A program made the position numbers and the translations under genes. Shown here in pieces: positions 2,337 through 62,117 of a stretch of 64,000 nucleotides of DNA. Source of the stretch: Nonlabens sp. Ci31 (GTDB taxonomy: Bacteria > Bacteroidota > Bacteroidia > Flavobacteriales > Flavobacteriaceae); NCBI RefSeq assembly GCF_012974865.1, contig NZ_CP043633.1, positions 2,303,001-2,367,000 of the forward strand. The letters run 5' to 3'. Below the pieces are notes generated by a model. It saw only the letters and a program-made list of their open reading frames with translations. It did no database searches and was not told where the DNA came from. The first letter of the stretch is position 1. The number at the start of each line of letters is the position of its first letter.

Positions 2337-2354
2337 CCGCTTTCGCGAAAGCGG
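2337..2354. repeat. Palindrome CCGCTTTCGCGAAAGCGG, intergenic
   Basis: Perfect 18-bp copy of the window-wide palindrome, between the biotin carboxylase and carrier-protein genes. Confidence 0.95.
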
Positions 2355-2396
2355 TACTATTATTAAGGTCTTCTCTTCTATTAAACTTTTAGAAAT

Positions 2397-2879
2397 CTAA
2401 CTTTCCATCTCGATAATAAGTTGCCCTTTATCCACTGAATCATCAATTTTAGCTTCAATTGATTTTACAATACCTTTACCGTCAGAAAGAATGACATTTT
2501 CCATTTTCATGGCAGATAATACAAAGAGCGGTGTGCCCTTTTCAATAGGATCACCAGCGTTAACCATTATGTCAATAATGTAGCCAGGCATAGGAGCCAT
2601 AATATTATTGGATTTTGTTTCTGTTTTTTCAAAAAGTCCCATTTGAGCAACCATTGTGTCATGCTCATCATCAATTTTTACGCGATAACTGTTTCCATTC
2701 ACCATAATGGTCATTGTTTTTTCAATCAATTTTTCGGTAATTATTTCCACATCATAGGCTTGATGATCTTGTAATAAATGAAAATTAGTAGTAGAAATTT
2801 GATGTATATCTAGAGATGATAAATCATTAGTAGTAACAGAAAAATCTTGTTGATCCACGTGAATAATATAGTTGCTCAT
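2397..2879 (-). CDS. Biotin carboxyl carrier protein of acyl-CoA carboxylase
   Basis: 160 residues when started at MSNYIIHVDQ; the open frame runs upstream to 2954, but that stretch overlaps the acs end and reads unlike the family. The C-terminal biotinyl-lipoyl domain has the AMKMEN biotin attachment site, the lysine lying about 35 residues from the end, after MPGYIIDIMVNAGDPIEKGTPLFVLS. The N-terminal half is a variable linker domain. It shuttles carboxybiotin between the two enzyme subunits encoded just downstream. A perfect palindrome copy lies between this gene and the biotin carboxylase gene. Confidence 0.93.
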   Translation of the reverse strand: MSNYIIHVDQQDFSVTTNDLSSLDIHQISTTNFHLLQDHQAYDVEIITEKLIEKTMTIMVNGNSYRVKIDDEHDTMVAQMGLFEKTETKSNNIMAPMPGYIIDIMVNAGDPIEKGTPLFVLSAMKMENVILSDGKGIVKSIEAKIDDSVDKGQLIIEMES

Positions 2880-2920
2880 AAGCTGCAATAATTTTTTAAA
2901 AGTTAAGGAGAAATAGTAAA

Positions 2921-4828
2921 TTATAAAACCTTGTCCATAATATCTTGTACACATTCTGGATTCAATAGTGTACTCGTGTCACCCAGATCGCTTGTGTCGT
3001 TTCCTGCTATTTTTCTAAGTATGCGACGCATTATTTTCCCAGAACGAGTTTTAGGTAAACTTTCCGTAAATTGGATTTTATCAAGTTTTGCAATGGGCCC
3101 GATTTGTTCGGTAATAATTTGATTGATTTCTTTTCTTAAATTATCGTGGTTTCTGCTTTCTCCAGTTTCTTTTAAGGTTACATATCCATACAATGCGTTT
3201 CCTTTGACATCATGTGGGAAACCTACTATAGCACTTTCAGAAACTGCTGGATGTTCATTTATAGCATCTTCTATAGGAGCTGTGCCCAGATTATGTCCAG
3301 AGACTATAATTACATCATCTACACGACCGGTTATTCTGTAATAACCTACTTCATCTCTCAATGCGCCATCTCCTGTAAAGTACATGTTTTCAAAAGCAGA
3401 GAAATAAGTGTCTTTATAACGTTGGTGATTTCCCCAGATAGTTCTTGCGATACCAGGCCATGGGAATTTTATGCACAAACGGCCATCTACTTGATTACCG
3501 TTTATTTCTTTGCCATGTTCATCTAACAATGCGGGTTGAATACCTATAAATGGTAAGGTGGCGTAAGTAGGTTTTGTTGGTGTCACATATGGAATAGGTG
3601 TTATCATAATACCGCCAGTTTCAGTTTGCCACCACGTATCCACAATAGGCGATTTTTTCTTTCCGATGTTATCGTCATACCAGTGCCATGCCTCTTCATT
3701 AATAGGTTCTCCTACGGTTCCTAAAACTTTTAAAGATGATAAATCATACTTTTCGACGTGTTCCACACCTTCTTTTGCAAGTGCTCTAATAGCTGTAGGA
3801 GCTGTATAGAATTGAGTCACTTGATGTTTTTCTACAATTTCCCAAAAGCGTCCATAATCTGGATAGCTTGGTACGCCTTCAAACATAAGGGTTGTTGCTC
3901 CGTTTGCTAACGGGCCATAAACTATATAACTGTGTCCAGTGATCCAACCTATGTCTGCCGTACACCAATACACATCATTTTCTTTATATTGAAATACATT
4001 CTTAAAAGTATAGGCGCTATACACCATATAGCCAGCTGTGGTATGCACCATTCCTTTGGGCATGCCAGTAGAACCAGAGGTATATAAGATGAATAAAGGA
4101 TCTTCTGCATCCATAACGGTAGCGACAAGCTCTGTTGAAGCCTCGTCTAACAAAGGCTGCAACCATTCATCACGACCTTCTTTCATACTGATTTCTGTAT
4201 GTATGCGTTTGGCAACTAAAACACTTTCTACACAGCTACAATCTTTTAAGGCCTCATCTACAATTCCTTTTAAATCGATTGTTTTTGCACCGCGATAGGA
4301 TCCATCTGATGTGATGACCATTTTACAATCGCTATCCTTAATTCTGGTAGCAATTGCAATCGAAGAAAAACCTGCAAATACCACAGAATGTATGGCTCCT
4401 ATGCGCGCGCAAGCTAATATGGAGATAGCTAACTCTGGAATCATAGGTAAATAAATACATATGCGATCCCCTTTTTTAATTCCTTTAGCTTTCAGCACAT
4501 TTGCAAACTTATTGACACGATGGTATAATTCTCTATAAGTAATATGTTGAGGAGCTTCTTTAGGATCGTTAGGTTCAAATAGGATGGCTGTTTTATCGCC
4601 TCTAGTAGCGAGATGTCTATCGATGCAGTTTTCTGTAATGTTTAATTTTGCACCTTCAAACCATTTTACTTCTGGTTTTTTAAAGTCCCAACTTAAAACT
4701 TGGTCCCATTTCTTGCGCCATAGAAAGTGTTCTTCGGCAATTTCTTCCCAAAATGCTTCAGGGTTATTTACTGATTTTCTATATACTTGATAATATTCTT
4801 CTAGGTGTTTTATATGATAATTACTCAT
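2921..4828 (-). CDS. acs: Acetyl-CoA synthetase (AMP-forming)
   Basis: 635 residues from MSNYHIKHLEEY. The frame opens further upstream, but a start at 4855 would overlap prpE and lacks family similarity. ANL-superfamily motifs are present: the ATP-binding loop YTSGSTGMPKG near residue 260, DTWWQTETGG, YFTGDGALRD, GRVDDVIIVSGHNLG, and the C-terminal KTRSGKIMRR with the catalytic lysine that acetylation controls in this family. It activates acetate, or another short acid, to acyl-CoA. It lies 10 bases after the paralogous propionate-CoA ligase, so the two are probably co-transcribed. Confidence 0.93.
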   Translation of the reverse strand: MSNYHIKHLEEYYQVYRKSVNNPEAFWEEIAEEHFLWRKKWDQVLSWDFKKPEVKWFEGAKLNITENCIDRHLATRGDKTAILFEPNDPKEAPQHITYRELYHRVNKFANVLKAKGIKKGDRICIYLPMIPELAISILACARIGAIHSVVFAGFSSIAIATRIKDSDCKMVITSDGSYRGAKTIDLKGIVDEALKDCSCVESVLVAKRIHTEISMKEGRDEWLQPLLDEASTELVATVMDAEDPLFILYTSGSTGMPKGMVHTTAGYMVYSAYTFKNVFQYKENDVYWCTADIGWITGHSYIVYGPLANGATTLMFEGVPSYPDYGRFWEIVEKHQVTQFYTAPTAIRALAKEGVEHVEKYDLSSLKVLGTVGEPINEEAWHWYDDNIGKKKSPIVDTWWQTETGGIMITPIPYVTPTKPTYATLPFIGIQPALLDEHGKEINGNQVDGRLCIKFPWPGIARTIWGNHQRYKDTYFSAFENMYFTGDGALRDEVGYYRITGRVDDVIIVSGHNLGTAPIEDAINEHPAVSESAIVGFPHDVKGNALYGYVTLKETGESRNHDNLRKEINQIITEQIGPIAKLDKIQFTESLPKTRSGKIMRRILRKIAGNDTSDLGDTSTLLNPECVQDIMDKVL

Positions 4829-4838
4829 GGCTTTTTTT

Positions 4839-6734
4839 TTATTTATGAATCCCAATGCCTTGGGCTTGATATATGGATTTAATTTCTTCTATTATGGATA
4901 GGTCATCTATGGTAGATGGGATGTTGTATTGAAGTTCGTCTGCTATATGGCGTAGTAATTTACGAAGTATTTTACCACTTCTTGTTTTAGGTAATCGGTT
5001 CACCACAAGTATATCTTTAAAAGAGGCAACAGCACCTATTTCACGTCTTAAGGCTTGGATAATTTCCTGCGGAATATGAAGTTCATCAGCTAGGTATTCA
5101 GGTTTTAAAACGATAAGCCCTAATGGTTTTTGTCCTTTTAAATCGCAATGCACACCAAAAACGGCGCACTCTGCCACTGATTTATGAGAGGCGATGACTT
5201 CCTCCATTCCGGCAGTAGATAGTCTATGTCCAGCTACGTTGATAACATCGTCCACGCGACCAGTAATAAATACATATCCATCTTCGTCTCTATAACCTCC
5301 ATCACCAGAAAAATAATAGCCTGGAAAACGGTCTAAATAATCAGATTTGAATCGTTCTGGATTACCCCATAGATTGCTTAACATTCCTGGTGGTAATGGT
5401 AATTTTACAGTAACATAACCTTCAACTCCAGCAGTTACTTCTTTTCCTTCATCGTTTACAATTCGTATATCATAGCCACAAACAGGAAAACCTGCAGAGC
5501 CTCCTTTTATAGGCTGTAATTCTACGCCCACCATATTTGCTAACATGGGCCAGCCACTTTCAGTTTGCCACCAGTGGTCTATGACGGGAACTTTTAATTT
5601 CTCTTGAGTCCATGTTAATGTGCTGACATCACAACGTTCTCCAGCCAGAAATTGGTATTTTAAACAAGAGATATCAAATGATTGAATCATCACGCCATCA
5701 GGGTCTTCTTTTTTAATGGCCCTAATGGCAGTAGGAGCGGTAAACATAACTTTTACACGGTGCTCACTAATCACGCGCCAAAAGGTAGAGGCGTCTGGTG
5801 TTCTTACAGGTTTTCCTTCAAATAGAACCGTCGTATTCCTGTTGAGTAAAGGACCATAAGCAATGTAGCTATGTCCAACTACCCAACCCACATCACTTGC
5901 TGCCCAGAAGCTGTCTCCTTCATCCACTCCATAAATGTATTTCATGGAGAATTTCAATGCAGTAGCATAACCACCTGTATCTCTTATAATTCCCTTGGGC
6001 GTTCCAGTTGTTCCTGAGGTATATAGAATGTAAGATGGGTGCGTTGAGGCTACGGGCACCGCTTCGATAGAATTGGAGGTTTCTACGAGATGTGCATAAT
6101 CTATATCATAAGGTTTTGCAGGAATTTGTACTCCTAGTTTCCTGTCGTATACAATGACGTGATCTGGTTGGTGTTTCGCTTTCGCGAAAGCGTCATCCAC
6201 AAAAGGTTTATAAGGGATTATGCGATCTATTTCTATCCCATTAGAAGCTGTGATAATGGCTTTAGGTTTGCAGTCATCAATACGTATGGCCAACTCCTGA
6301 GGCGCAAAACCACCAAACACTACAGAATGTACAACGCCTATTCTCAGGCATGCCAGCATTGCATACAACGCCTGCGGAATCATGGGCATATAAATGATGA
6401 CGGTATCTCCTTTTTCAATTCCCAAGCTTTGCAATCCTCCGGCTAATTTTGAAACTTCTAGGTGCAATTTATAGTAGCTAATATGCTCTTTTGTTGCCGT
6501 TACAGGCGAGTCGTAAATAATGGCATCTTGCTCACCATAACCATTTTTGATATGGGTATCGATGCAGAGATAACTCAAGTTGAGTTTGCCATCTTCAAAC
6601 CATTGATTGTGGTCGCTTTTATTTTTAGACAGGATGTTTTGAGGCATTTTATACCAGTCTAGTTGCGCAGCTTGTGTCTTCCAAAAATGTTCTGGATGAT
6701 CCATACTTTTTCTATAAAAATCTACATAACTCAT
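4839..6734 (-). CDS. prpE: Propionate-CoA ligase (PrpE-like)
   Basis: 631 residues of the AMP-forming acyl-CoA synthetase family with YTSGTTGTPKG near residue 238, DHWWQTESGWP, YYFSGDGGYRDEDGY, GRVDDVINVAGHRLST and KTRSGKILRK. The HWWQTESGWP variant and overall pattern fit PrpE/AcsS3-type propionyl-CoA synthetases rather than Acs. Its start overlaps the preceding small ORF by 4 bases (ATGA), implying translational coupling. Product propionyl-CoA would feed the carboxylase encoded downstream. A palindrome copy at 6177-6192 is part of the coding sequence and encodes AFAKA. Confidence 0.88.
   Translation of the reverse strand: MSYVDFYRKSMDHPEHFWKTQAAQLDWYKMPQNILSKNKSDHNQWFEDGKLNLSYLCIDTHIKNGYGEQDAIIYDSPVTATKEHISYYKLHLEVSKLAGGLQSLGIEKGDTVIIYMPMIPQALYAMLACLRIGVVHSVVFGGFAPQELAIRIDDCKPKAIITASNGIEIDRIIPYKPFVDDAFAKAKHQPDHVIVYDRKLGVQIPAKPYDIDYAHLVETSNSIEAVPVASTHPSYILYTSGTTGTPKGIIRDTGGYATALKFSMKYIYGVDEGDSFWAASDVGWVVGHSYIAYGPLLNRNTTVLFEGKPVRTPDASTFWRVISEHRVKVMFTAPTAIRAIKKEDPDGVMIQSFDISCLKYQFLAGERCDVSTLTWTQEKLKVPVIDHWWQTESGWPMLANMVGVELQPIKGGSAGFPVCGYDIRIVNDEGKEVTAGVEGYVTVKLPLPPGMLSNLWGNPERFKSDYLDRFPGYYFSGDGGYRDEDGYVFITGRVDDVINVAGHRLSTAGMEEVIASHKSVAECAVFGVHCDLKGQKPLGLIVLKPEYLADELHIPQEIIQALRREIGAVASFKDILVVNRLPKTRSGKILRKLLRHIADELQYNIPSTIDDLSIIEEIKSIYQAQGIGIHK
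6177..6192. repeat. Palindrome CGCTTTCGCGAAAGCG inside prpE
   Basis: Perfect 16-bp copy read in frame as AFAKA in the minus-strand protein. Confidence 0.95.
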
Positions 6735-10358: not shown

Positions 10359-10374
10359 CGCTTTCGCGAAAGTG
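10359..10374. repeat. Palindrome copy CGCTTTCGCGAAAGTG, intergenic
   Basis: One mismatch from the 16-bp consensus. It lies upstream of the small membrane protein / symporter-kinase genes. Confidence 0.85.
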
Positions 10375-19738: not shown

Positions 19739-19754
19739 CGCTTTCGCGAAAGCG
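19739..19754. repeat. Palindrome CGCTTTCGCGAAAGCG, intergenic
   Basis: Perfect copy with flanks extending the dyad (TTTC / GAAA), between the DAACS and WG-repeat genes. Confidence 0.95.
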
Positions 19755-37595: not shown

Positions 37596-38883
37596 GATAT
37601 TAAATATGAAAGGAAGTAATAAGTGGAAGTTGTCAAAAATCCAATTTCCAGCTTCCAGCTTCCAACTTCTTACAGCGCTAGCCATAGCTGTTTTCATCCA
37701 AGACGGTGTGCAGGCGCAGTCTCTAGAATCATACATTCAAGAAGCTCAAGCCAACAACCCTGAAATCCAAGCCTTTAATCTCCGTTACAATATTGCGGAA
37801 GAAAAAGTCAATGAAGCCAACTGGCTACCCAGCACAGAACTAAGCGCAGGCTACTTTGTGAGCGAACCAGAAACTAGGACAGGGGCGCAACGAGCAAGAA
37901 TTGGTTTTAAGCAAATGTTGCCCTGGTTTGGTACCATCACCGCTCGTGAAAATTTTGCTTCCTCCATGGCTGAAGCCGAATATGTGGAAGTCACAATTGC
38001 CAAAAGAAAATTAGCGCTATCCGTGGCTGGAAGCTATTATAATCTTTATCAGATACGAGCGAAGCAGGTCGTGCTTTATGAGAATATTCAACTGTTGGAA
38101 ACCTATGAACGGCTTGCGCTTACCTCCATAGAAGTAGGCAAGGCATCAGCGGTGGATGTGTTGCGGTTACAGATACGGCAAAATGAATTGCAGCAACAAA
38201 AAGAAGTGCTGGAGGAAGAGTTCCTGGCAGAACAAACGGTGTTCAATAACTTACTGAACCGTGATCAACTGATGGCGGTGGACTTAGTCCCTTCACTAGA
38301 AATTCCAGCGGAAGATCTTGTGTACGGTTCAGATGCGTTGACACTCAATCCGGAATTGCTCAAGTACGACAGGCTTTACGAATCTGTGGCTCAGTCAGAA
38401 TTGCTCAACAAGCGGGAGAGTTTACCTATGTTGGGCTTCGGTGTGGATTACCTGCCCGTCACCGCTCGAACGGATATGAACCCTTCGGATAACGGGAAAG
38501 ACGTTTTGATGCCTATGTTTTCGGTTTCCATTCCCATTTTCAATAATCGTTATAAATCCATTTCCAAGCAAAATGAGTTGCGTCAGCAGGAAATTGAGAC
38601 CCAAAAGATGCAACGGTTGAATGTGTTAGAATCCGCTTTCGCGAAATCGAAATCCCAACGCAACCAGGCACGTATAAAATTCAATACACAACAGAAAAAC
38701 CTGAAACAAGCCCGCGATGCGGAAGAAATCCTCATTAAGAATTATGAAACGGGAACGATAAACTTCAATGATGTGCTGGATATTCAAGAGTTGCAATTAA
38801 AATTTCAGATGAACCAAATCGAATCTGTGCAGATGTATTATGTGCAAGCGGCGCTTATCAATTATTTAACGATGCAGACCTAA
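37585..38883 (+). CDS. TolC-family outer-membrane efflux protein (CusC-like)
   Basis: 432 residues; the ATG at 37585 overlaps the IVP stop by 11 bases, and an ATG at 37606 is an alternative. The signal peptide (LLTALAIAVFIQDGVQAQS) is preceded by KIQFPASSFQ, which is the translation of an inverted piece of the minisatellite. The body has two OEP repeats, with LESYIQEAQANNPEIQAFN opening the first. It forms the outer duct for the CusA pump. A palindrome variant lies at 38634. The stop codon lies within a REP-like palindrome. Confidence 0.88.
   Translation: MKNRILNMKGSNKWKLSKIQFPASSFQLLTALAIAVFIQDGVQAQSLESYIQEAQANNPEIQAFNLRYNIAEEKVNEANWLPSTELSAGYFVSEPETRTGAQRARIGFKQMLPWFGTITARENFASSMAEAEYVEVTIAKRKLALSVAGSYYNLYQIRAKQVVLYENIQLLETYERLALTSIEVGKASAVDVLRLQIRQNELQQQKEVLEEEFLAEQTVFNNLLNRDQLMAVDLVPSLEIPAEDLVYGSDALTLNPELLKYDRLYESVAQSELLNKRESLPMLGFGVDYLPVTARTDMNPSDNGKDVLMPMFSVSIPIFNNRYKSISKQNELRQQEIETQKMQRLNVLESAFAKSKSQRNQARIKFNTQQKNLKQARDAEEILIKNYETGTINFNDVLDIQELQLKFQMNQIESVQMYYVQAALINYLTMQT
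38634..38649. repeat. Degenerate palindrome CGCTTTCGCGAAATCG inside the tolC gene
   Basis: One mismatch from consensus, read as AFAKS. Confidence 0.8.
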
Positions 38884-40224: not shown

Positions 40225-40251
40225 ATATCCATTGTGTTAAAATTAAAAACT

Positions 40252-42699
40252 ATGAGAATGAGAATATTAGTTGTGCTCTTTCTAAGTGTTTCCTTCGGGG
40301 CAAAGGCACAATTGACGGCAAATAAAACGGAAGAAAATGTGGACAACTGGCCAGAGCATGTTTATGATCTTAGCATAGATTATGAAATAGTAAACTTTAC
40401 TGGAAAGCATATAAAAGCAATGACAGTGAATGGAGGAATTCCTGGTCCTAATCTGGAATTCAATGAAGGGGAGTTTGCGATTATCAATGTCACCAATAAG
40501 ATGGATGTAGAAACATCAGTTCACTGGCACGGATTGATTTTGCCTAATTTCTACGATGGCGTACCTTACTTGTCCACACCACCTATTAGACCTGGAGAAA
40601 CGCTACAATACAAGTTCGCTTTAAAACAATCTGGAACCTATTGGTACCATTCGCATACAGGATTACAAGAACAACGTGGTGTGTATGGTAGTATTCAAAT
40701 AAACCCAAAAACTACAGATCTGAAATACGACAAAGATCTGGTTTTAGTTCTTTCAGACTGGATGGATGAAAACCCGCAATCACAACTAAAAAACCTGAAA
40801 CGTGGTAACGAATGGTATTTGATTAAAAAGGGTCAGGTTCAAAGTTTAGATAAATTAATAGCACAAAACGCAGTTGGCGCCAAATTGAAAATGGCCTGGC
40901 AGCGCATGCCAGATATGGCGATTTCTGACAACTACTTTGACAAATTCTTTATCAATGGAAGTGCCCAGCAAAACTATCCTGATTTCAAAGCTGGTGATCG
41001 AGTGAGACTGCGATTCGTAAATGCGTCTGCAGCGACTTATTACTGGTTAACCTTTGGTGGCGATGACCCGATGTTGGTTTCGGCAGATGGTCTTGATGTC
41101 GTTCCTGTGAAACATAATAAGACCTTGATAGGTGTTGCAGAAACTTATGATTTCATCGTTACCGTTCCTGAAAATGGCAAATTACAGGTTAGAGCCACAG
41201 CACAAGATGGTTCAGGAGAAGCTTCAGCATTTATCGGGACAGGGGTACTACTTGAAGCGCCAGTAAATCCAGAACCCAACCTTATTAAAAGCATGAAACA
41301 GATGATGTCCATGGGTATGAAAATGGGTGCACCAGCTTCTAAATTCAATCCATCTAAAAATGATTCCATTCAGGTAATGGAAAAATATAAGATGGATATG
41401 AGCGGGATGCAAATGGACGGAATGTCAATGGACGATGGCGAGATGAAAATGGAGATGGATGGAGAAATGCAGGGAATGAAGATGGATTCGCTTTCGCGAA
41501 AGCGAAATAACGACAAGTCTAATGCCATGAAAAAAGATATGAAAATGTCCAAATCGCAGATGAAGATGAAGGGCAACCAGATGATGAATCACAACATGAA
41601 AATGGAAGATGATTCAGAAATGGCTACAATGAAAATGGGTTATATGATCCCAGATGATAAAGTAGTTGGTGACAATATGAAAACCGGTGGCAATCCAGCA
41701 TTTAATTACAACTACTTGCGTGCGAAAGAATCTACTGTGATTAAAAATGATAAGCCAGTGAAGGAGATGCTGTTCAACCTAACTGGAAATATGAATCGCT
41801 ATATTTGGAGTATTAATGGTGTACCTCTTTCAGAAACAGACAAGATAAAAATCAAGCAGGGCGAGGTTGTTCGCATCACGCTCAACAACCTGACCATGAT
41901 GCACCACCCGATGCACCTGCACGGACATTTCTTTAGAGTGCTGAATGAAAACGGAGCATACTCACCGCTGAAGCATACGGTTAATGTAGCACCCATGCAA
42001 AAGGTGGTGATCGAGTTTGATGCCAGTGAACAAGGTGACTGGTTCTTTCATTGCCATATTTTATATCATATGATGAGTGGAATGGCACGGGTTTTTAGTT
42101 ATGATACACCACGCGATGAGCGTTTAGAGGAATATCCTTTAAAAAACCTAACCAATGAAGCTGACCATATATTTACCTGGGGCGAGGTGAGCGCTGCCAG
42201 CCATATGACAGAGTTGTACGCCACCGCTACGAATATTAGAAACCAATTTACCCTAATGGGAGAATATGGCTGGAACAAGAATCTGGAAACAGAGTTTACC
42301 TATGAGCGGTATCTCAATGACTATTTCCGTGTTTTTGGTGGGGTAAATGTAGAGAATGAAGGAGCAGATAGTCTTGAGGACATCAATACTACTGCGATTG
42401 CAGGAGTGCGCTGGTTGATGCCGTTGCTCATTAATTCTGACTTTAGGATTGATAGTAAACTGCGCCCAGAAATAAGGTTCAGTACAGGCTTTATGATTTT
42501 CCCACGATTGGGAATCTATGGAGAATATGAATACCAGATGGATTTTGGTTGGGATGGCAACCTTCCACAAGGACAGGATTATGGAGAAGAAACCACTTGG
42601 CAAGTTGGATTGGAATATGTCTTAAGTCGCAATTTTTCTTTGATGAGCAGCTATGACAATAGGTTTGGCGCTGGTGGTGGATTGTCATTAAGATTTTAA
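40252..42699 (+). CDS. Multicopper oxidase fused to an outer-membrane-barrel domain (CopA-CopB/PcoAB type)
   Basis: 815 residues from MRMRILVVLFLSVSFGAKAQ (signal peptide). The cupredoxin part has the four copper motifs: HWHGLI, WYHSHTG, HHPMHLHGHFFRV and WFFHCHILYHMMSGM. A Met-rich stretch lies near residues 380-470 (many MxM/MKM). The last about 170 residues (TLMGEYGWNKNLETEFTYERYL to FGAGGGLSLRF) look like a CopB/PcoB barrel with an aromatic C-terminal end. Oxidation of Cu(I) next to an outer-membrane domain is inferred. A palindrome copy (41489) encodes LSRKR within the Met-rich stretch. Confidence 0.88.
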   Translation: MRMRILVVLFLSVSFGAKAQLTANKTEENVDNWPEHVYDLSIDYEIVNFTGKHIKAMTVNGGIPGPNLEFNEGEFAIINVTNKMDVETSVHWHGLILPNFYDGVPYLSTPPIRPGETLQYKFALKQSGTYWYHSHTGLQEQRGVYGSIQINPKTTDLKYDKDLVLVLSDWMDENPQSQLKNLKRGNEWYLIKKGQVQSLDKLIAQNAVGAKLKMAWQRMPDMAISDNYFDKFFINGSAQQNYPDFKAGDRVRLRFVNASAATYYWLTFGGDDPMLVSADGLDVVPVKHNKTLIGVAETYDFIVTVPENGKLQVRATAQDGSGEASAFIGTGVLLEAPVNPEPNLIKSMKQMMSMGMKMGAPASKFNPSKNDSIQVMEKYKMDMSGMQMDGMSMDDGEMKMEMDGEMQGMKMDSLSRKRNNDKSNAMKKDMKMSKSQMKMKGNQMMNHNMKMEDDSEMATMKMGYMIPDDKVVGDNMKTGGNPAFNYNYLRAKESTVIKNDKPVKEMLFNLTGNMNRYIWSINGVPLSETDKIKIKQGEVVRITLNNLTMMHHPMHLHGHFFRVLNENGAYSPLKHTVNVAPMQKVVIEFDASEQGDWFFHCHILYHMMSGMARVFSYDTPRDERLEEYPLKNLTNEADHIFTWGEVSAASHMTELYATATNIRNQFTLMGEYGWNKNLETEFTYERYLNDYFRVFGGVNVENEGADSLEDINTTAIAGVRWLMPLLINSDFRIDSKLRPEIRFSTGFMIFPRLGIYGEYEYQMDFGWDGNLPQGQDYGEETTWQVGLEYVLSRNFSLMSSYDNRFGAGGGLSLRF
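41489..41504. repeat. Palindrome CGCTTTCGCGAAAGCG inside the oxidase gene
   Basis: Perfect copy read as LSRKR in the Met-rich linker. Confidence 0.95.
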
Positions 42700-42735
42700 A
42701 TACGTAAATTAATAACCTTTATAAATACAAATAAT

Positions 42736-43582: not shown

Positions 43583-43600
43583 CAGCTTAAACGATATAAA

Positions 43601-44056: not shown

Positions 44057-44077
44057 CCAATTTAAAAACCAACCAAA

Positions 44078-44611: not shown

Positions 44612-44613
44612 TT

Positions 44614-47409
44614 ATGAAACACACCTATCACATACAAGGAATGACCTGTAATGGTTGTCGCAGTCACGTCGAGCAGACGCTTTCTAAAGTGGATGGTGTA
44701 ACTCATGTTTCGGTAAATTTAGAAAATGCAGAAGCCACCATTGAAATGGAATCCCACATTCCTCTCGAGACCTTTCAAAAGGCACTTCAAGAAGATGGCG
44801 ATACGTATTCGATTCATAAAAGTCCCCTCCCAACCTCCCCAAAGGAGAAGAGCCCAAAAATTGCAAAAGGTTCGATGACACACACCTACTCCATTCACGG
44901 AATGACCTGCAACGGCTGCCGCAGCCACGTTGAAAAAATACTTTCTGAAGTAGAAGAAGTTTCAAATGCTACGGTCGATTTAGAAAAAAAGGAAGCTACC
45001 ATAGTGATGGATAAACATATTCCTATTGAAAAACTTCAAGAAGTTTTAAAAAACGACGGTGGGACTTATAGCATTCACAATCTTGGCGAGCAAAGTCATT
45101 CTTCTGAAAAGACAGTAAAAACATCAAAGACTTCCAGCCCCCAACCTCCAGCTTCCAGCCTCGGTAAAGGTACTGGAACGTTCTACTGCCCGATGCACTG
45201 CGAGGATGACAAGACCTATAACAAACCTGGCGACTGTCCGGTCTGTGGGATGGACCTTGTAGAAGAACAAAATTTATCGGCCACCACAAGCGAACAGTGG
45301 ACATGCCCGATGCATCCAGAAGTCATAAAAGACGAATCTGGAGCTTGTCCTATTTGCGGTATGGATCTCGTTCCTATACAGCCAGATATTTCGGCAGAAG
45401 AGAAATCCTATAAAAAACTGTTGAAGAAATTCTGGATTGCGGTGGCGTTCACCCTGCCTATTTTCCTGATCGCCATGAGTGAGATGATTCCTAACAACCC
45501 GCTGTACGAGGTGATGGAACAAAAAGGGTGGAACTGGATCCAATTTGGCCTGTCCATTCCTGTCGTGTTTTATGCGACTTGGATGTTTTTTGAACGTGCC
45601 TATAGAAGTGTGAAGACATGGAATCTTAATATGTTTACCCTTATCGGTATAGGTGCAAGTGTGGCCTGGCTATTCAGTGTTTTTGGGATGTTGTTTCCAG
45701 ACTTTTTCCCAGAGCAGTTTAAAACAGAATCTGGTGCCGTACACGTCTATTTTGAAGCGGCTACTGTTATTCTTACTTTGGTGTTGATGGGTCAAGTACT
45801 GGAAGCACGTGCACATAGCAAAACCAACTCTGCTGTCAAAGAATTATTGAAGCTAGCGCCTAATAAAGCAGTACGTGTGGTAGATGGTAACGAAGAAGAT
45901 GTATCCATTGACCACATTCAAAAAGGAGATATTCTAAGAGTTAAACCAGGTGATAAAATTCCTGTGGACGGCATTATCACCGAAGGGAAAACCACCGTGG
46001 ATGAATCCATGATTTCTGGAGAGCCTATTCCGGTTGATAAAGCTGAGAATGATCAAGTAAGCAGCGGTACCATTAATGGTAACCAATCCTTCTTGATGAA
46101 GGCCGAAAAAGTAGGAAGCGATACTTTGCTTTCTCAAATCATAAAAATGGTCAACGACGCCAGTCGCAGCCGTGCACCCATCCAGAAGTTGGCCGACACG
46201 GTTTCCGGTTATTTTGTGCCAGTGGTGGTTGGAATTTCCATCATCACCTTTGCCGTATGGGCGATTTGGGGGCCTGAGCCCGCTTATGTATTTGCCTTGG
46301 TCAATGCCATTGCCGTCTTGATCATCGCCTGTCCTTGTGCGTTGGGACTAGCTACACCTATGTCTATTATGGTGGGCGTAGGTAAAGGCGCTCAAAACGG
46401 AGTGCTGATCAAAAATGCGGAAGCTCTGGAAAAAATGGACACCGTAGATACCTTGATAGTAGACAAGACAGGAACCATTACAGAAGGAAAACCGACTGTG
46501 GAAAAAATAGGTGTGTTTGGAGATCGCTTTCGCGAAAGCGAAATAACACAACTCGTTGCATCCCTCAACAGTTCCAGCGAGCATCCACTTGCGGAAGCCA
46601 CCGTTAAATACGGTAAAGAACAAAATACGGAAATTTTAAAAACTGAAAACTTTAGTGCCGTAACCGGTAAAGGAGTCGAAGGAACCGTTGATGGTAAAAA
46701 ACTCGATTTAGGAAATGCCAAAATGATGGCATATGCTAATGCTACCATTTCGCCAGAAATGGAAACTGAGGTACAATCCTTTCAAAAACAAGGTAAGACA
46801 GTTTCTTATCTGGCGATAGACGGCGTGGTATCTGGATATGTAGTGATTGGTGATAAAATCAAAGCAACCAGCGCTGAGGCAATTGCAGCGCTGCAAGAAA
46901 AAGGCATTGCTGTCATCATGTTGACAGGGGATAATCATGATACGGCTCAAGCCGTAGCTAGTGAGCTCCACCTAGCTGATTTTAAAGCAGGTATGTTACC
47001 AGAAGACAAACTCAACGAAGTAACTAAATTACAAGAACAAGGTAAAGTGGTTGCCATGGCTGGTGACGGTATCAACGATGCACCGGCACTTGCTAAAAGT
47101 GACGTAGGAATCGCGATGGGAACGGGAACTGATGTCGCCATCGAAAGCGCTATGATTACATTAGTCAAAGGCGATTTACACGGGATCTTAAAAGCAAAAA
47201 ATTTAAGCCATGCCGTAATGAAGAATATCAAGCAAAACCTATTTTTTGCACTGGTTTACAATACATTGGGTGTGCCTGTAGCTGCTGGAGTATTATTTCC
47301 TTTCTTTGGAATATTATTATCCCCTATGATTGCAGCTTTAGCAATGAGTTTTAGCTCTGTTTCCGTTATTGCAAATGCCTTAAGACTCAAATCAAAATCA
47401 ATCAACTAA
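44614..47409 (+). CDS. copA: Copper-exporting P1B-1 ATPase with two HMA and two metal-binding modules
   Basis: 931 residues from MKHTYHIQGMTCNGC. Order: HMA 1 (GMTCNGCRSH), linker, HMA 2 (GMTCNGCRSH), linker, two CPMH/CGMD metal-binding modules (about 190-265), then the ATPase with CPC (IACPCALGLATP), DKTGTITEGKP, SSEHPLAEA and GDGINDAPAL. Both linkers contain genome repeats in frame: a Pro/Ser segment from a CCCCTCC-type repeat (44821) and PPASSL from minisatellite sequence (45131). A palindrome (46525) encodes RFRES. It pumps Cu(I) to the periplasm. Confidence 0.95.
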   Translation: MKHTYHIQGMTCNGCRSHVEQTLSKVDGVTHVSVNLENAEATIEMESHIPLETFQKALQEDGDTYSIHKSPLPTSPKEKSPKIAKGSMTHTYSIHGMTCNGCRSHVEKILSEVEEVSNATVDLEKKEATIVMDKHIPIEKLQEVLKNDGGTYSIHNLGEQSHSSEKTVKTSKTSSPQPPASSLGKGTGTFYCPMHCEDDKTYNKPGDCPVCGMDLVEEQNLSATTSEQWTCPMHPEVIKDESGACPICGMDLVPIQPDISAEEKSYKKLLKKFWIAVAFTLPIFLIAMSEMIPNNPLYEVMEQKGWNWIQFGLSIPVVFYATWMFFERAYRSVKTWNLNMFTLIGIGASVAWLFSVFGMLFPDFFPEQFKTESGAVHVYFEAATVILTLVLMGQVLEARAHSKTNSAVKELLKLAPNKAVRVVDGNEEDVSIDHIQKGDILRVKPGDKIPVDGIITEGKTTVDESMISGEPIPVDKAENDQVSSGTINGNQSFLMKAEKVGSDTLLSQIIKMVNDASRSRAPIQKLADTVSGYFVPVVVGISIITFAVWAIWGPEPAYVFALVNAIAVLIIACPCALGLATPMSIMVGVGKGAQNGVLIKNAEALEKMDTVDTLIVDKTGTITEGKPTVEKIGVFGDRFRESEITQLVASLNSSSEHPLAEATVKYGKEQNTEILKTENFSAVTGKGVEGTVDGKKLDLGNAKMMAYANATISPEMETEVQSFQKQGKTVSYLAIDGVVSGYVVIGDKIKATSAEAIAALQEKGIAVIMLTGDNHDTAQAVASELHLADFKAGMLPEDKLNEVTKLQEQGKVVAMAGDGINDAPALAKSDVGIAMGTGTDVAIESAMITLVKGDLHGILKAKNLSHAVMKNIKQNLFFALVYNTLGVPVAAGVLFPFFGILLSPMIAALAMSFSSVSVIANALRLKSKSIN
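46525..46540. repeat. Palindrome CGCTTTCGCGAAAGCG inside copA
   Basis: Perfect copy read as RFRES in the nucleotide-binding domain. Confidence 0.95.
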
Positions 47410-47421
47410 TCTATATTTATA

Positions 47422-48009: not shown

Positions 48010-48010
48010 A

Positions 48011-48718: not shown

Positions 48719-48731
48719 AATACTAAGTATC

Positions 48732-49695: not shown

Positions 49696-51435
49696 ATGAA
49701 TAAGAACATTTTATATATAGGAATCGCGGTAATTATAGGACTGCTTGCTGGTTGGCTCATTTTTGGAAGCAATTCCATAGATACACCATCCAGTAAGGAT
49801 CTGTCTGACATGTCAGACAGCCATGACCACGCAGGCGAATCTGCAGAACAAATGTGGACCTGCTCCATGCACCCACAAATTATGAAATCAGAGCCAGGCG
49901 ATTGCCCTATTTGCGGTATGGAGCTTATTCCAGCCGAGTCCAGTGCAGAAGGTCTTGCGGCAAATGAGATCAAAATGACTAAAAATGCCATGGCACTCGC
50001 TAATATTCAAACCACAACGGTAGGTAGCGGTGCGGCTTCTGATGATGAAGGAATGATATCGCTGTCTGGCAAGATTGCTGCTAACGAAGAAAATAACTCT
50101 GTACAAGCCAGTTATTTTGATGGTCGTTTGGAAAAACTGAATGTAAGTTATGAAGGCCAGCAAGTAAGTCGGGGACAATTATTAGCCACGATCTATGCGC
50201 CTCAACTGGTAGCAGCGCAACAAGAATTAATTACAGCAGCTTCTTTAAAAGAATCTCAACCAGAATTGTATCAAGCGGTACGCAATAAATTGAAGAATTG
50301 GAAACTGTCGGAAAGTCAAATTAATACCATAGAATCTTCAGGTAAGGTACGCGATAATTACCCTGTATATGCTACAGTTTCAGGAACAGTGGTACTCGTA
50401 ATGGCAGCAGAAGGTGATTATCTCAAACAAGGACAACCTATCCTAAAAGTAACTAACTTGAATTCGGTTTGGGCAGAATTTGATGCGTATGAAAGTCAAC
50501 TATCCAACCTTAAAGAAGGACAACAAATAAAAGTAACGACTAACGCTTATGCCAACAAGGAATTTGATGCCACCGTATCTTTTATAGATCCCATGCTTAA
50601 CAATGCCACTCGTACGCTAACCGTTAGAGCAACACTTAAAAATACAGAGGGTATTTTTAAGCCCGGAATGTTTGTGACTGGCAAATTGAAAGGAGAAACA
50701 AATAGGAACGAGGAATCACTTACAGTTCCTGCAAGTGCTGTGATGTGGACTGGAGAACGCTCGTTAGTTTACATTAAAACCAGTCTTAATGAGCCTGTTT
50801 TTGAAATGCGAGAAGTAAGGATCGGTAACCGTAGTGGTGAAAATTATACGATTACCGCAGGACTTCAAAATGGCGATGAGATTGTTACCAACGGTACTTT
50901 TACCGTTGATGCTGCTGCCCAATTACAAGGTAAAAAGTCCATGATGAACCAAGGAAAGGAAGAGCTTATTGAGATGCCCATGTCTGAAATGAAAATGAAA
51001 TTCTCTGAAAGCTTTCAGAAGGACTTTAAAAAGGTTTTACAATCCTATTTGCAAATGAAAGATGCCTTTGTAGTCAGTGATTCAGAGCAGGTTTCCGCTT
51101 TCGCGAAAGCGACATCAAAATCTTTAAAGTCTATAACTATAGGAAGTCTGGGTAAAATGGAACAATCGCATATTAAGAAAAGTATTGAAATGCTCGACGC
51201 CATTGCCAAAAATGAAGACCTTGAAAACCAACGAGATCATTTTGTAATACTGAATGAGAACATGGTAGTTATCGCGATGAATGTTAAAGGAGCAACTCCT
51301 GTATATGTTCAGAAATGCCCTATGGCTAACAACAACAAAGGTGCTGTGTGGTTGAGTACCGAAAAAGATATAAAAAACCCGTATTACGGTGATGCAATGT
51401 TGACCTGCGGAAGTGTGATTGAAGAGATCAATTAG
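49696..51435 (+). CDS. cusB: CusB-type RND periplasmic adaptor with metal-binding and DUF3347 domains
   Basis: 579 residues. An N-terminal anchor (ILYIGIAVIIGLLAGWLIF), a heavy-metal-binding module (WTCSMHPQIMKSEPGDCPICGMELIP, about 54-80), the HlyD/CusB barrel and hairpin (about 110-410), and a C-terminal DUF3347 (about 430-579; CPMANNNKGAVWLSTEKDIKNPYYG). It links CusA to the outer duct and may hand over metal. A palindrome copy encodes AFAKA in the DUF3347 part. A strong terminator follows. Confidence 0.92.
   Translation: MNKNILYIGIAVIIGLLAGWLIFGSNSIDTPSSKDLSDMSDSHDHAGESAEQMWTCSMHPQIMKSEPGDCPICGMELIPAESSAEGLAANEIKMTKNAMALANIQTTTVGSGAASDDEGMISLSGKIAANEENNSVQASYFDGRLEKLNVSYEGQQVSRGQLLATIYAPQLVAAQQELITAASLKESQPELYQAVRNKLKNWKLSESQINTIESSGKVRDNYPVYATVSGTVVLVMAAEGDYLKQGQPILKVTNLNSVWAEFDAYESQLSNLKEGQQIKVTTNAYANKEFDATVSFIDPMLNNATRTLTVRATLKNTEGIFKPGMFVTGKLKGETNRNEESLTVPASAVMWTGERSLVYIKTSLNEPVFEMREVRIGNRSGENYTITAGLQNGDEIVTNGTFTVDAAAQLQGKKSMMNQGKEELIEMPMSEMKMKFSESFQKDFKKVLQSYLQMKDAFVVSDSEQVSAFAKATSKSLKSITIGSLGKMEQSHIKKSIEMLDAIAKNEDLENQRDHFVILNENMVVIAMNVKGATPVYVQKCPMANNNKGAVWLSTEKDIKNPYYGDAMLTCGSVIEEIN
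51096..51111. repeat. Palindrome CGCTTTCGCGAAAGCG inside cusB
   Basis: Perfect copy read as AFAKA in the DUF3347 domain. Confidence 0.95.
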
Positions 51436-55383: not shown

Positions 55384-55456
55384 GTCTATCTTTTTTTGGC
55401 ACTTTTCGCGAAAGCGAAAACAATCACAAAAAGGATATTCACTGCTATCCTTAACG
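55384..55456. repeat. Variant of the hairpin repeat, with a palindrome half-copy
   Basis: ATCTTTTTTTGGCAC and CACAAAAAGGATATTCACT, then GCTATCCTTAACGC, match the hairpin repeat at 49240-49600. Between the arms, TTTTCGCGAAAGCG (55403-55416) is an incomplete copy of the window-wide palindrome. Confidence 0.7.
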
Positions 55457-59081: not shown

Positions 59082-59099
59082 CCGCTTTCGCGAAAGCGG
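59082..59099. repeat. Palindrome CCGCTTTCGCGAAAGCGG, intergenic
   Basis: Perfect 18-bp copy, extended to TTCC/GGAA. Confidence 0.95.
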
Positions 59100-59947: not shown

Positions 59948-61276
59948 TTATTTAAAATCGTTAATACTTTCACTTAAATCAAACACAGTGGTGTCTTTTA
60001 AAATTCTTGATAAAATACTACTTCCCGCGGCACTTCTATAACCACCGAGGCAATGAACCACTACAGGCTTATTCCTTGGAATATGAACTCCACTTTGTCT
60101 CAATTCGTTTAATGGATGTGATGTTGCATTTTCAAAGAATTTTTCCTCATCAACTTCACTTAGATTGCGAATATCAATTATGGTGTAGTTATCAGGATTT
60201 TTCTTGAAATCTTTTAAATCTAATACGTCAGTTTCCATTAGGTTTTCTTTTTGGAGCGTAATGATTTCTTTTAATTGCTTTTCATACCCGATTTTAGCAA
60301 TTCTTTGGAGTATGTAGTCTTTACGCTCTTCTTTATCGATTACCAAAGTAAACTCTTCTTCTGGCTCCACGATTGCGCCTAGCCAGGTCTCAAACTTTGC
60401 ATTTTCTGAAACCGCTTGTATATTGATACTACCTGACAGATGACCTTTTTTAAATAAAGCTTCATCTCTTATGTCTACAATTAAACCAGTCGCCGTTGTA
60501 TCTCTTTTAAACGGAACTCTATCAATAGCCGGCTTTAGATTTTCTGCTCCAGCTTTATTGATATCTACATCAAATCCAAAATAGGAAGGTATAAAAGGTT
60601 GTCCATCAAGAATGGTATCCATAAACTTCTGCTTGGACTGTTTCTTAAACGCCCAATTGCTTTTACGTTCATCTCCTAGAGTACTACTAGCGGCATCACT
60701 CATACTCTTGCCACAAAGTGAACCTGCGCCGTGTGCTGGATATACTAAAGCATGATCTGGTAAATAATTAAACTTTGTGGAAAGGCTGTCATACATCATT
60801 TCTGCAAGCTCTTCGCGTTTAGCTTTCATATTACCAGCTTTTTCACGTAAATCTGGACGTCCCACATCACCTATAAATAAAGTGTCTCCAGTAAATAGGG
60901 CCGTTTCATCATCTTTAGTTGCAACAATTGTTATACTATCTGGAGAGTGTCCTGGTGTATTGATAGCACTTAGCATTACATCTCCAATTTTTATACTATC
61001 GCCATCGTCAAAGGATTTATGAGGGTAATCTGCGCCTAATTTTTTGCTGTTATAGATAGTTGCGCTAGTTTCTTTGTGAATCTGTAGGTGTGAGCTGACA
61101 AAGTCTGCATGTGGATGAGTTTCTATTACCGCTATGATTGTTGCGTTATTCGCTTTCGCGAAAGCGTAATACTGACTAGGATCACGTTCTGGATCAATAA
61201 TTGCCATTTCTCCATTATTTACGATCACGTAGGAATAATGAGCTAAAGGCTTATATTCAAATTGTTTTATTATCAT
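59948..61276 (-). CDS. CstB-like persulfide dioxygenase-rhodanese protein
   Basis: 442 residues with the CstB order. Metallo-beta-lactamase/ETHE1-type dioxygenase domain (about 1-240; ETHPHADFVSSH, NTPGHSPDS, TGDTLFIGDVGRPD, YPAHGAG). A rhodanese-like domain without catalytic cysteine follows (about 265-350; IVDIRDEALFKKGHLSGSINI). A C-terminal rhodanese has CLGGYRSA (about 355-442). It would oxidise low-molecular-weight persulfides to sulfite/thiosulfate. A palindrome copy encodes AFAKA near the N-terminus. Confidence 0.9.
   Translation of the reverse strand: MIIKQFEYKPLAHYSYVIVNNGEMAIIDPERDPSQYYAFAKANNATIIAVIETHPHADFVSSHLQIHKETSATIYNSKKLGADYPHKSFDDGDSIKIGDVMLSAINTPGHSPDSITIVATKDDETALFTGDTLFIGDVGRPDLREKAGNMKAKREELAEMMYDSLSTKFNYLPDHALVYPAHGAGSLCGKSMSDAASSTLGDERKSNWAFKKQSKQKFMDTILDGQPFIPSYFGFDVDINKAGAENLKPAIDRVPFKRDTTATGLIVDIRDEALFKKGHLSGSINIQAVSENAKFETWLGAIVEPEEEFTLVIDKEERKDYILQRIAKIGYEKQLKEIITLQKENLMETDVLDLKDFKKNPDNYTIIDIRNLSEVDEEKFFENATSHPLNELRQSGVHIPRNKPVVVHCLGGYRSAAGSSILSRILKDTTVFDLSESINDFK
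61151..61166. repeat. Palindrome CGCTTTCGCGAAAGCG inside the CstB-like gene
   Basis: Perfect copy read as AFAKA (context YAFAKANN). Confidence 0.95.
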
Positions 61277-61331
61277 AATTTCAAGTATTTAATTAAGTGC
61301 TTTAGTGCTGCCACATAAAGCCCTTATTTCT

Positions 61332-61997
61332 TTAGAGATCTTTTTTAGCGAGATACCAAGTGATTTTTTCTACAGAATCATCTGCAAGTCTCTCGTTTAA
61401 TGCATCAAGAGATTTTGGTGGTGGACAAATTACTTTATCGCCTCTTTTCCAGTCTAACGGCATTGATACTTTGTGTTTATCCGACATTTGTAAAGCATCT
61501 AACGCACGAAGTATTTCATCCATATTGCGGCCTACATTCAATGGGTAATACATAATTAAACGTATTTTCTTTGCAGGGTCTATAAAGAAAACGGCTCTTA
61601 CCGCAGCTGTTTCACTTTCATTAGGCTGTAACATCCCATATAGTTTTGATACTTTCATATCAATATCTGCGATAATAGGGAAGTCAAAATAAACTCCTGT
61701 AGTCTCCCTTACATTTTGTACCCAACCTAAATGTGCGTGAATACTGTCTATGCTCAATCCCAAAAGCTCGGTATTTAAAGCATCAAACTCAGGTTTTCTG
61801 ATGGCAAATCCGCTCATTTCAGTAGTACAAACAGGAGTGAAATCTGCTGGATGTGAAAACATAACTATCCATTTGTCTTTTGCAAAATCAGACATTTTAA
61901 TATCCCCCTTAGTTGTAACGGCTTCAAAATTTGGAGCTTTATCTCCAATTCTTGGCATTGAAATAGGTTGTTCCGGTAATAAATTCAAGTTATCCAT
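61332..61997 (-). CDS. 1-Cys peroxiredoxin (Prx6 type)
   Basis: 221 residues. SHPADFTPVCTTEM contains the peroxidatic cysteine; no partner cysteine of the 2-Cys type, and the extended C-terminal domain (MPLDWKRGDKVICPPPKS) is Prx6-like. It reduces peroxides. It is the first gene of the Prx-CstB-Dps operon and has a Crp/Fnr-like promoter. Confidence 0.93.
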   Translation of the reverse strand: MDNLNLLPEQPISMPRIGDKAPNFEAVTTKGDIKMSDFAKDKWIVMFSHPADFTPVCTTEMSGFAIRKPEFDALNTELLGLSIDSIHAHLGWVQNVRETTGVYFDFPIIADIDMKVSKLYGMLQPNESETAAVRAVFFIDPAKKIRLIMYYPLNVGRNMDEILRALDALQMSDKHKVSMPLDWKRGDKVICPPPKSLDALNERLADDSVEKITWYLAKKDL

Positions 61998-62030
61998 AAT
62001 AGTATTTACTTATTGAAATATTTTACGATA

Positions 62031-62074
62031 TAAATTTAAGCTATATTAATGGTTTTTACAGTAACATAGGTTAC
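62031..62074 (-). promoter_or_regulatory. Crp/Fnr-type promoter of the Prx-CstB-Dps operon
   Basis: On the minus strand GTAACCTATGTTAC (62061-62074; core TAACCTATGTTA), 23 nt, TAAATTTA (62031-62038). The core is a GTAAC variant, but the full palindrome and spacing match the group. Confidence 0.6.
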
Positions 62075-62103
62075 AAAACAAAGTTCTAAAAAACAACATA
62101 GAT

Positions 62104-62117
62104 GCTTTCGCGAAAGC
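62104..62117. repeat. Palindrome GCTTTCGCGAAAGC, intergenic
   Basis: 14-bp perfect inner part of the palindrome. Confidence 0.9.

What the first reader, a model, noticed from the sequence alone, without database searches (positions are those of the whole stretch)
2337..62117. A highly repeated, stop-free palindrome (CGCTTTCGCGAAAGCG) spread through genes and spacers
I count about 12 perfect or nearly perfect copies (2337, 6177, 10359, 19739, 24542, 34755, 41489, 46525, 51096, 59082, 61151, 62104) and three degenerate ones (34367, 38634, 55403), about one per 4-5 kb. A random 16-mer is expected about once in 4 billion bases. It is its own reverse complement and has no stop in any frame, so it can sit in coding DNA; it does so in all three frames (AFAKA in prpE, pta, tolC, cusB and cstB; LSRKR in cusA and the oxidase; RFRES/RFSES in copA and cusA). 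This is like cyanobacterial HIP1 in behaviour but different in sequence. Its role (replication, repair, uptake or methylation motif) is open.
Basis: partly seen in the sequence, partly recalled or inferred. Interest (0 to 1): 0.78.

Follow-up and report, generated by a model that had tools for sequence, protein, structure and literature searches.

The report
Genus-wide repeated 16-base DNA palindrome
Marine bacteria of the genus Nonlabens carry hundreds of evenly spaced copies of one 16-base DNA palindrome, kept in place over long evolution, which look like a tag by which these bacteria could recognise and take up DNA of their own kind.

Summary
CGCTTTCGCGAAAGCG occurs 355 times in the 3.74-Mb genome (Markov expectation 0.0001-0.034). 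The 22 other genomes held of the genus have 180-737 copies each. The genus is Nonlabens, inferred from named loci. Of 397 family genomes scanned, two of other genera also have it genome-wide.

Copies arose in place by base changes and mostly stay at the same codons while proteins drift to about 70% identity. They are evenly spaced and enriched between genes. Flanks are C-poor on the 5' side and G-poor on the 3' side over about 28 bp. The motif is absent from a 91-kb stretch with NRPS genes, a low-GC transposase stretch and two phages grown on a Nonlabens host, but present at host density in some integrase- or transposase-bearing phage groups.

This profile matches DNA uptake sequences of Pasteurellaceae and Neisseriaceae. 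Best explanation: a palindromic uptake (self-recognition) sequence in Bacteroidota (0.55). Uptake is inferred, not shown; no receptor was found. A HIP1-type methylation link is not supported. A chromosome-organising or Chi-like site remains open.

The parts
2338..2353 (.). perfect copy, intergenic (between ORFs 849-2321 - and 2397-2954 -)
6177..6192 (.). perfect copy inside an acyl-CoA synthetase gene (4839-6734 -)
10359..10374 (.). copy with 1 mismatch, intergenic
19739..19754 (.). perfect copy, intergenic
34367..34382 (.). copy with 1 mismatch inside an RND (ACR_tran, CusA-like) gene (33023-36820 +); exact in three aligned blocks of other genera
34755..34770 (.). perfect copy inside the same RND gene; at most 2 mismatches in 5 of 7 aligned blocks of other genera
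38634..38649 (.). copy with 1 mismatch inside an outer-membrane efflux (OEP, TolC-like) gene (37585-38883 +); at most 1 mismatch in 7 of 8 aligned blocks of other genera
41489..41504 (.). perfect copy inside a multicopper oxidase gene (40222-42699 +); absent in 5 of 5 aligned blocks of other genera
46525..46540 (.). perfect copy inside a heavy-metal P-type ATPase gene (44563-47409 +)
51096..51111 (.). perfect copy inside a CusB-like membrane-fusion gene (49696-51435 +)
55401..55416 (.). copy with 3 mismatches, all in the outer three bases of one half-site, intergenic
59083..59098 (.). perfect copy, intergenic
61151..61166 (.). perfect copy inside a metallo-beta-lactamase/rhodanese (CstB-like) gene (59948-61276 -)
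62103..62118 (.). copy with 2 mismatches, both outermost bases (14-bp core intact), intergenic

Best explanation
The palindrome is the core of a DNA uptake sequence: a self-recognition tag read by the natural-transformation machinery of Nonlabens and of two other flavobacterial genera. A receptor with two-fold symmetry (a dimer, or two copies of one domain) would bind the 14-16 bp dyad and touch the C-poor/G-poor flanks, so that fragments with a copy are taken up better. Because such DNA recombines back into chromosomes, copies that arise by mutation are favoured, while a second copy close to an existing one adds little, which gives even spacing. SHOWN here: abundance, in-place origin, positional conservation, even spacing, the biased flanks, lineage variants, absence from a few probable acquisitions and from two phages without an annotated integrase, presence in some integrase- or transposase-bearing phage groups, and a ComEC domain in all 25 carriers searched. 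INFERRED: that the sequence acts in uptake, that a dedicated receptor exists, and that the maintenance is uptake-driven.
For: Genus-wide: 23 of 23 genomes held, 180-737 exact copies. In-place origin by substitution, no gap, with amino-acid differences that fit the motif (pta), as reported for USS (PMC1626085, passages). Sites stay put: 34 of 37 aligned non-sprA comparisons have at most 2 mismatches against 65 of 287 control windows; two sprA sites exact at the same codons in 17 of 18 species each. Even spacing: 0 of 99 intervals under 1 kb against 9.25 expected (G000, exact copies); 2 of 74 against 15.9 (G002 without its one gap). 165 of 263 copies (63%) coding; PMC1626085 gives 65% for H. influenzae USS. 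Less-conserved flanks, as in USS. Lineage variants: outer base relaxed in G022, T favoured at +1 in 31 copies of G250/G266, recalling USS/DUS dialects. Two phages grown on a Nonlabens host have 0 copies at up to 3 mismatches; seven loci of two phage groups that include transposase- or integrase-bearing contigs have 93-232 per Mb at up to 1 mismatch: the contrast reported for Pasteurellaceae phages (PMC6776037, section 11 passages). A 91-kb stretch with NRPS genes and a low-GC transposase stretch have none. ComEC domain in 25 of 25 carriers searched. Riemerella columbina, also a flavobacterium, prefers its own DNA (PMC7965970, passages).
Against: I found no uptake data for Nonlabens and identified no receptor. 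Known DUS/USS are not palindromic and lie at about one per kb (PMC1626085), against one per 4-7 kb here even at up to 1 mismatch. ComEC rings in 10 of 14 control genomes, so it is only a necessary condition. Even spacing and conservation would also fit a chromosome-organising site. G000 counts per 20 kb are not under-dispersed (index 0.97), G016 intervals are only weakly so (P 0.047), and G002 is clumped if its 91-kb gap is kept (CV 1.96). L103, a 20-kb stretch of G000 at normal GC, has none and I do not know why. The phage contrast rests on one closely related pair with a known host, and on groups whose hosts are unknown; copies in the Mu-like phage lack the biased flanks.
Confidence: 0.55

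Rival explanations
1. Binding site of a lineage-specific chromosome-organising or nucleoid-occlusion protein, evenly spread to fold or mark the chromosome.
For: A perfect dyad suits a dimeric DNA-binding protein; even spacing; biased flanks over about 70 bp in all; strong positional conservation. Prophages would acquire it once part of the chromosome.
Against: No origin-terminus trend visible in 20 stretches each of G000 and G019 (the origin was not located). A 91-kb segment without any copy is tolerated in G002 and two 20-kb stretches in G000. Copies inside phage portal and terminase genes at host-like density are not an obvious need of such a protein.
Confidence: 0.22
2. Orientation-free Chi-like recombination/exonuclease control site: a RecBCD/AddAB-type enzyme would respond from either side, with C-poor single strand 5' of the site as RecA loading zone.
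For: Density of one per 4-7 kb at up to 1 mismatch is like that of E. coli Chi (recalled); the T/G-rich 5' flank sits where a 3' tail would be loaded; even spacing.
Against: Known Chi sites are 5-8 nt and asymmetric (recalled). Phages P12024S/L lack it, though they bear recombination genes of their own. Which end-processing enzyme these genomes have was not tested.
Confidence: 0.1
3. HIP1-like sequence created and kept by an orphan DNA methyltransferase plus methyl-directed mismatch repair.
For: Over-represented, GC-rich palindrome in a low-GC genome; the model of PMC4390886.
Against: PF00145, PF01555 and PF02086 are patchy and all three are absent in G006, G007, G009, which carry 427-680 copies. 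Constraint covers 14-16 bp plus flanks, beyond a methyltransferase site. Other methyltransferase classes were not searched.
Confidence: 0.06
4. RNA-level or mobile element: terminator hairpin, or REP/MITE-type insertion.
For: The 16-mer could form a 6-bp hairpin (by inspection, not folded); 98 of 263 copies are intergenic.
Against: Intergenic copies lie in all gene arrangements (++ 30, -- 28, -+ 21, +- 17, 2 at a stretch end). Flanks are T/G-rich before and A/C-rich after, the wrong way round for a terminator, without consistent pairing. The codon alignment shows substitutions, not insertion.
Confidence: 0.02

Closest known systems
Uptake signal sequence (USS) of Haemophilus influenzae and other Pasteurellaceae
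   Same: Hundreds or more copies genome-wide; arises by substitution in place; about two thirds inside genes; somewhat more regular than random; flanking degenerate segments; two clade types; accumulates in temperate phages and not in likely lytic large ones (PMC1626085 and PMC6776037, passages).
   Different: 9-bp asymmetric core at about one per kb with AT-rich segments on one side; here a 14-16 bp perfect palindrome, one per 4-7 kb at up to 1 mismatch, with biased flanks on both sides, in a family whose competent members examined showed no pilus homologues (PMC8459023, passages). Uptake not shown here.
DNA uptake sequence (DUS) of Neisseriaceae
   Same: Abundant motif with dialects that follow the phylogeny (PMC3630211, passages).
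   Different: About 10-12 bp and asymmetric, bound by ComP (abstract of PMC3868556 in the listing); no counterpart known for this motif.
HIP1 and alternate HIPs of cyanobacteria
   Same: Highly iterated GC-rich palindrome.
   Different: HIP1 is 8 bp, HIPs lie at 1000-2000 per Mb and are tied to cognate methyltransferases (PMC4390886, abstract and first part of the Discussion); here longer, rarer, flanked, and without a universal methyltransferase of three classes.
Chi sites
   Same: Density like that of E. coli Chi (recalled).
   Different: Short and oriented (recalled); this is a symmetric 16-mer.

Membership tests
DNA uptake sequence (USS/DUS) | Strong genome-wide over-representation | tested here: met
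   355 against at most 0.034 expected; 23 of 23 genus genomes held
DNA uptake sequence (USS/DUS) | Arises in place by substitutions, not insertion | tested here: met
   pta codon alignment, 12 motif-lineage and 12 outgroup rows, no gap at the site; one gene only
DNA uptake sequence (USS/DUS) | More even spacing than random | tested here: met
   interval CV below random in G000, G004, G002 and weakly G016; G002 400 kb without its gap; per-20-kb index 0.36 in G019, 0.59 in G022, but 0.97 in G000
DNA uptake sequence (USS/DUS) | Lineage-specific variants (dialects) | tested here: met
   outer base relaxed in G022; different +1 base in 31 copies of G250/G266; whether variants affect function is unknown
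DNA uptake sequence (USS/DUS) | Present in temperate phages, poor in lytic phages and recent acquisitions | tested here: inconclusive
   met in the cases examined but these are few, related phages, mostly of unknown host
DNA uptake sequence (USS/DUS) | Competence machinery present | tested here: met
   ComEC domain in 25 of 25 carriers searched; other competence genes not tested
DNA uptake sequence (USS/DUS) | Preferential uptake of DNA with the sequence, by a specific receptor | not testable with these tools
   needs an uptake or transformation assay
HIP (highly iterated palindrome, cyanobacterial) | Cognate DNA methyltransferase in every genome with the sequence | tested here: not met
   PF00145 14/23, PF01555 12/23, PF02086 4/23; three genomes with none of these; other classes not tested
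HIP (highly iterated palindrome, cyanobacterial) | Short palindrome at about 1000-2000 per Mb | tested here: not met
   16-mer at 72-224 exact per Mb
Chi site | Short asymmetric sequence read in one orientation by RecBCD/AddAB (recalled) | tested here: not met
   motif is its own reverse complement; enzyme response not testable
REP/MITE insertion | Inserted copies | tested here: not met
   no gap at the site in aligned pta orthologues; other genes were not aligned with outgroups at codon level

The most novel reading that the evidence does not exclude
An independent invention of DNA self-recognition for natural transformation in Bacteroidota, using a long symmetric site (about 70 bp with flanks) read by a two-fold symmetric receptor in an uptake machine without type IV pili, shared by Nonlabens and at least two more genera and usable as a tracer of gene flow out of these bacteria.
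Probability: 0.48. Interest if true: 0.9.

Novelty: new variant of a known kind. Interest (0 to 1): 0.77.

Why it matters
[quoted passage not shown] passage). A flavobacterium was found to prefer its own DNA, but the k-mer search reported there was limited to short words and the top entries that I saw are A-rich (PMC7965970, passages and start of its Table 3). A clear 14-16 bp element with sister species, variants, and phage and transfer contrasts turns self-DNA recognition in Bacteroidota into a simple competition assay. It may also serve as a watermark: copper-resistance blocks in seven other genera carry copies at some of the same sites as this genome.

Tried and rejected
Extended hairpin: flank positions -k/+k pair above shuffle at a few positions (1, 3, 12) and below at others (4, 13, 16), so no consistent long stem. 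Origin-terminus bias: none visible in evenly spaced stretches. Other dispersed long palindromes in 77 named flavobacterial loci without the motif: none found; the top words listed for those loci looked like local repeats (loci of 5-22 kb, so a weak test). Universal methyltransferase: rejected for three classes. A signal needed by every phage: P12024S/L and 80 P12024-like contigs (831 kb, hosts mostly unknown; the list appears to include P12024L itself) have no copy at up to 2 mismatches. Literature: (open-licence PMC papers) gave no report of this motif or of an iterated palindrome in flavobacteria; I judged most by listings. One of the ten papers was checked; its passages concern absent words in animal genomes (PMC8034619).

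Rows dropped and results against: L191 was left out of the G019 dispersion count (more than 1000 N). One search kept pairs of at least 60% protein identity and left out sprA; its 28 query sites include orthologous or reciprocal ones, one of 38 pairs had no aligned site, and three comparisons (two sites) had 10-11 mismatches. In one search the 45 within-genus pairs below 60% identity gave 4 exact and 8 at up to 2 mismatches; many are paralogues (pta against a PTA-domain paralogue). One search used only the listed places of each genome. Flank tables for intergenic copies and for G022, G250 and G266 pool both strands, so their mirror symmetry is imposed; the 69 AFAKA-frame coding copies, read in gene direction only, show both flanks. 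The 45-kb gap between exact copies in G000 holds two 1-mismatch copies. At up to 1 mismatch the reversed control gives 1 in G020 and 0 in the other 98 genomes.
Full report
OBSERVATION. The 16-mer CGCTTTCGCGAAAGCG occurs 10 times exactly in the window and 15 times with up to 3 mismatches; shuffled windows give 0.08 on average. In the chromosome (one contig, 3,740,082 bp) there are 355 exact copies and none of the reversed control. Markov models of order 1-5, fitted to 464 kb of this genome, expect 0.0001-0.034. The motif is nearly all-or-none: in 1.264 Mb from three species there are 195 exact copies, 57 with one, 11 with two, 8 with three and 24 with four mismatches; 35 of the 57 single mismatches are at the outermost base pair.

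HOST AND RANGE. A pta search of named genomes put the window in Flavobacteriaceae. The 22 other genomes held of the genus have 180-737 exact copies and 362-897 at up to one mismatch; that is 72-224 exact and 145-269 per Mb at up to one mismatch, with rounded genome sizes for most. Of the 76 genomes outside the genus, four have 1-4 copies and 72 none. In a family scan of 397 genomes with the 14-mer core, 80 had any match; besides the four Nonlabens included, G250 (408) and G266 (857) have it genome-wide, and the next highest count is 19. A tree of the sprA-like protein puts 18 Nonlabens in one clade and G250+G266 in another (both 100/100), relation unresolved, so one or two gains. Between these two genera and Nonlabens five comparisons were possible, two of them the two directions of one site: of four distinct coding sites, two are shared at up to 2 mismatches.

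ANATOMY. Among the 102 copies at up to 2 mismatches in 400 kb of G022 the core GCTTTCGCGAAAGC is nearly invariant (97.5-100% per half-site position), while the outer base is C 63%, A 20%, T 16% and G 1.5%. In 77 intergenic exact copies of three species, both strands pooled, the 3' flank has A at +2 and +3 (75%, 68%), T at +4 (55%), A at +6, +9 and +12 (53%, 65%, 61%), and G falls to 1-11% from +3 to +28 against 17% background; pooling makes the 5' side its mirror image. In 69 coding copies in the AFAKA frame, read in gene direction, the 5' flank is C-poor and the 3' flank G-poor as well, most clearly at wobble positions. Enriched 3' five-mers include CCAAC, ACAAC and AACAC. The element is thus about 70 bp. 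Flank pairing shows no consistent covariation.

PLACEMENT. 165 of 263 copies are in ORFs and 98 intergenic, against 8.5-13% non-coding sequence by a mechanical ORF call; all gene arrangements occur. Frames: AFAKA 86, LSRKR 41, RFRES 38. Spacing is even: G000 first 100 places, CV 0.68 against 0.99 +/- 0.10 and no interval under 1 kb (9.25 expected); G004 CV 0.46, G002 0.55, G016 0.77 (P 0.047). In 400 contiguous kb of G002 (76 copies at up to 2 mismatches) there is one 91-kb gap, with which the CV is 1.96; without it 74 intervals have mean 4,069 bp, maximum 9,482 bp and CV 0.46 against 0.99. Two large ORFs tested in the gap have condensation, AMP-binding and carrier domains, so it contains NRPS genes; that it was acquired is an inference. 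Counts per 20 kb have dispersion index 0.36 in G019 (19 stretches), 0.59 in G022 and 0.97 in G000 (20 each). No origin-terminus trend was visible. Two of 20 G000 stretches are empty: L108 (GC 0.309, with a DDE-type transposase) and L103 (GC 0.39, unexplained).

EVOLUTION. In pta, 9 of 12 motif-lineage rows have the full 16-mer at the same codons (two pairs of these rows are identical there and probably the same genomes), one (G022) differs in the outer base and two (G009, G019) in one other base; the 12 outgroup rows show no gap, the nearest (Psychroserpens, L011) is three bases away, and residues such as Y, E and T stand where Nonlabens has F, K and A. In a sprA-like gene of about 2,400 codons two sites are exact at the same codons in 17 of 18 species each; the eighteenth (G014) has the first site about 55 bp upstream, and G000 has one mismatch in the second. 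The first site is absent in the 12 other genomes tested, G250 and G266 included. Outside sprA, 28 query sites gave 37 aligned comparisons, mean protein identity 79%: 22 exact, 34 at most two mismatches, mean 1.24; control windows in the same alignments: 8 of 287 exact, 65 of 287 at most two, mean 4.57. Copies are thus old, placed by substitution and held by DNA-level selection or drive.

MOBILE DNA. Two phages isolated on a Nonlabens (Persicivirga) host, P12024S and P12024L, have no annotated integrase and no copy at up to 3 mismatches; at the host density, five or more each would be expected. A scan of viral contigs found 41 stretches with an exact copy, some GC-rich and probably chance. Twenty selected ORFs were searched: they include portal, terminase, capsid and tail genes, and integrases in L206 and L220; Mu-like transposase genes are in L210 and L241. 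Contigs L204, L208, L213, L214, L225 and others were not resolved as temperate or not. Seven loci of two groups (Mu-like with L241's contig; the group sharing sites with L206) have 93-232 copies per Mb at up to one mismatch, at similar places in phages 74% identical in terminase; a more distant relative (34%) has none. Copies of the Mu-like phage lack the biased flanks.

TRANSFER. Of 13 stretches with clustered copies taken from 9 genomes of other genera, 9 stretches from 7 genera are homologues (66-81% in aligned pieces) of window 32.4-51.4 kb, a copper block with RND pump, outer-membrane factor, multicopper oxidase, P-type ATPase and membrane-fusion genes. At the six window sites inside it, 22 of 41 aligned places have at most 2 mismatches: 7 of 8 at 38634, 5 of 7 at 34755, 4 of 8 at 34367, 3 of 8 at 46525, 3 of 5 at 51096, 0 of 5 at 41489. 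In the G406 stretch all five copies found at up to 2 mismatches have 1-2 mismatches. This fits descent from a motif-bearing donor with decay where nothing keeps the motif; direction of transfer was not tested.

MECHANISM. The set of traits is that of uptake sequences: in-place origin, about 65% in genes, more regular than random, flanking degenerate segments and clade variants (PMC1626085, PMC1939737, PMC3630211; passages), and accumulation in temperate but not likely lytic large phages (PMC6776037, section 11 passages). A ComEC domain is present in 25 of 25 carriers searched. Some flavobacteria are competent, one prefers its own DNA, and no pilus homologues were found in them (PMC7965970, PMC8459023; passages). 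What differs is the symmetry, the length, the lower density and the two-sided flanks, which point to a different, two-fold symmetric receptor. Uptake itself has not been shown. The HIP1-type methylation model is disfavoured. A chromosome-organising site and a Chi-like site stay open and are testable.

Noticed in passing
window 32459-51422: A copper-handling gene block (RND pump, TolC-like factor, multicopper oxidase, P-type ATPase, CusB-like) with homologues in seven other flavobacterial genera, where 22 of 41 aligned motif places keep the motif at up to 2 mismatches.
   Followed up: partly
loci (for example L150:10917, L159:11090, L145:9101); list: The AFAKA reading often falls in a signal-peptide cleavage region (for example VFAFAKA|Q in a sprA-like protein); 24 of 123 coding copies with a mapped start lie at codons 8-35, and 8 of these 24 read AFAKAQ. 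No control for enrichment was run.
   Followed up: partly
L167-L172 (G002:C1:131676-222905): A 91-kb motif-free segment with very long ORFs, two of which were tested and are NRPS-like; perhaps acquired.
   Followed up: partly
G033:C18:82639-174393: Another genus carries eight motif copies at up to one mismatch on one contig; one of two stretches looked at is the copper block, the other is not.
   Followed up: partly
L108 (G000:C1:3179001-3199000) and L103 (G000:C1:2244001-2264000): Two motif-free 20-kb stretches: L108 is low-GC (0.309) with a DDE integrase-type transposase, L103 is at normal GC and unexplained.
   Followed up: partly
L012: A MAG labelled Dokdonia carries the Nonlabens motif at three exact sites and may be mislabelled.
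   Followed up: no
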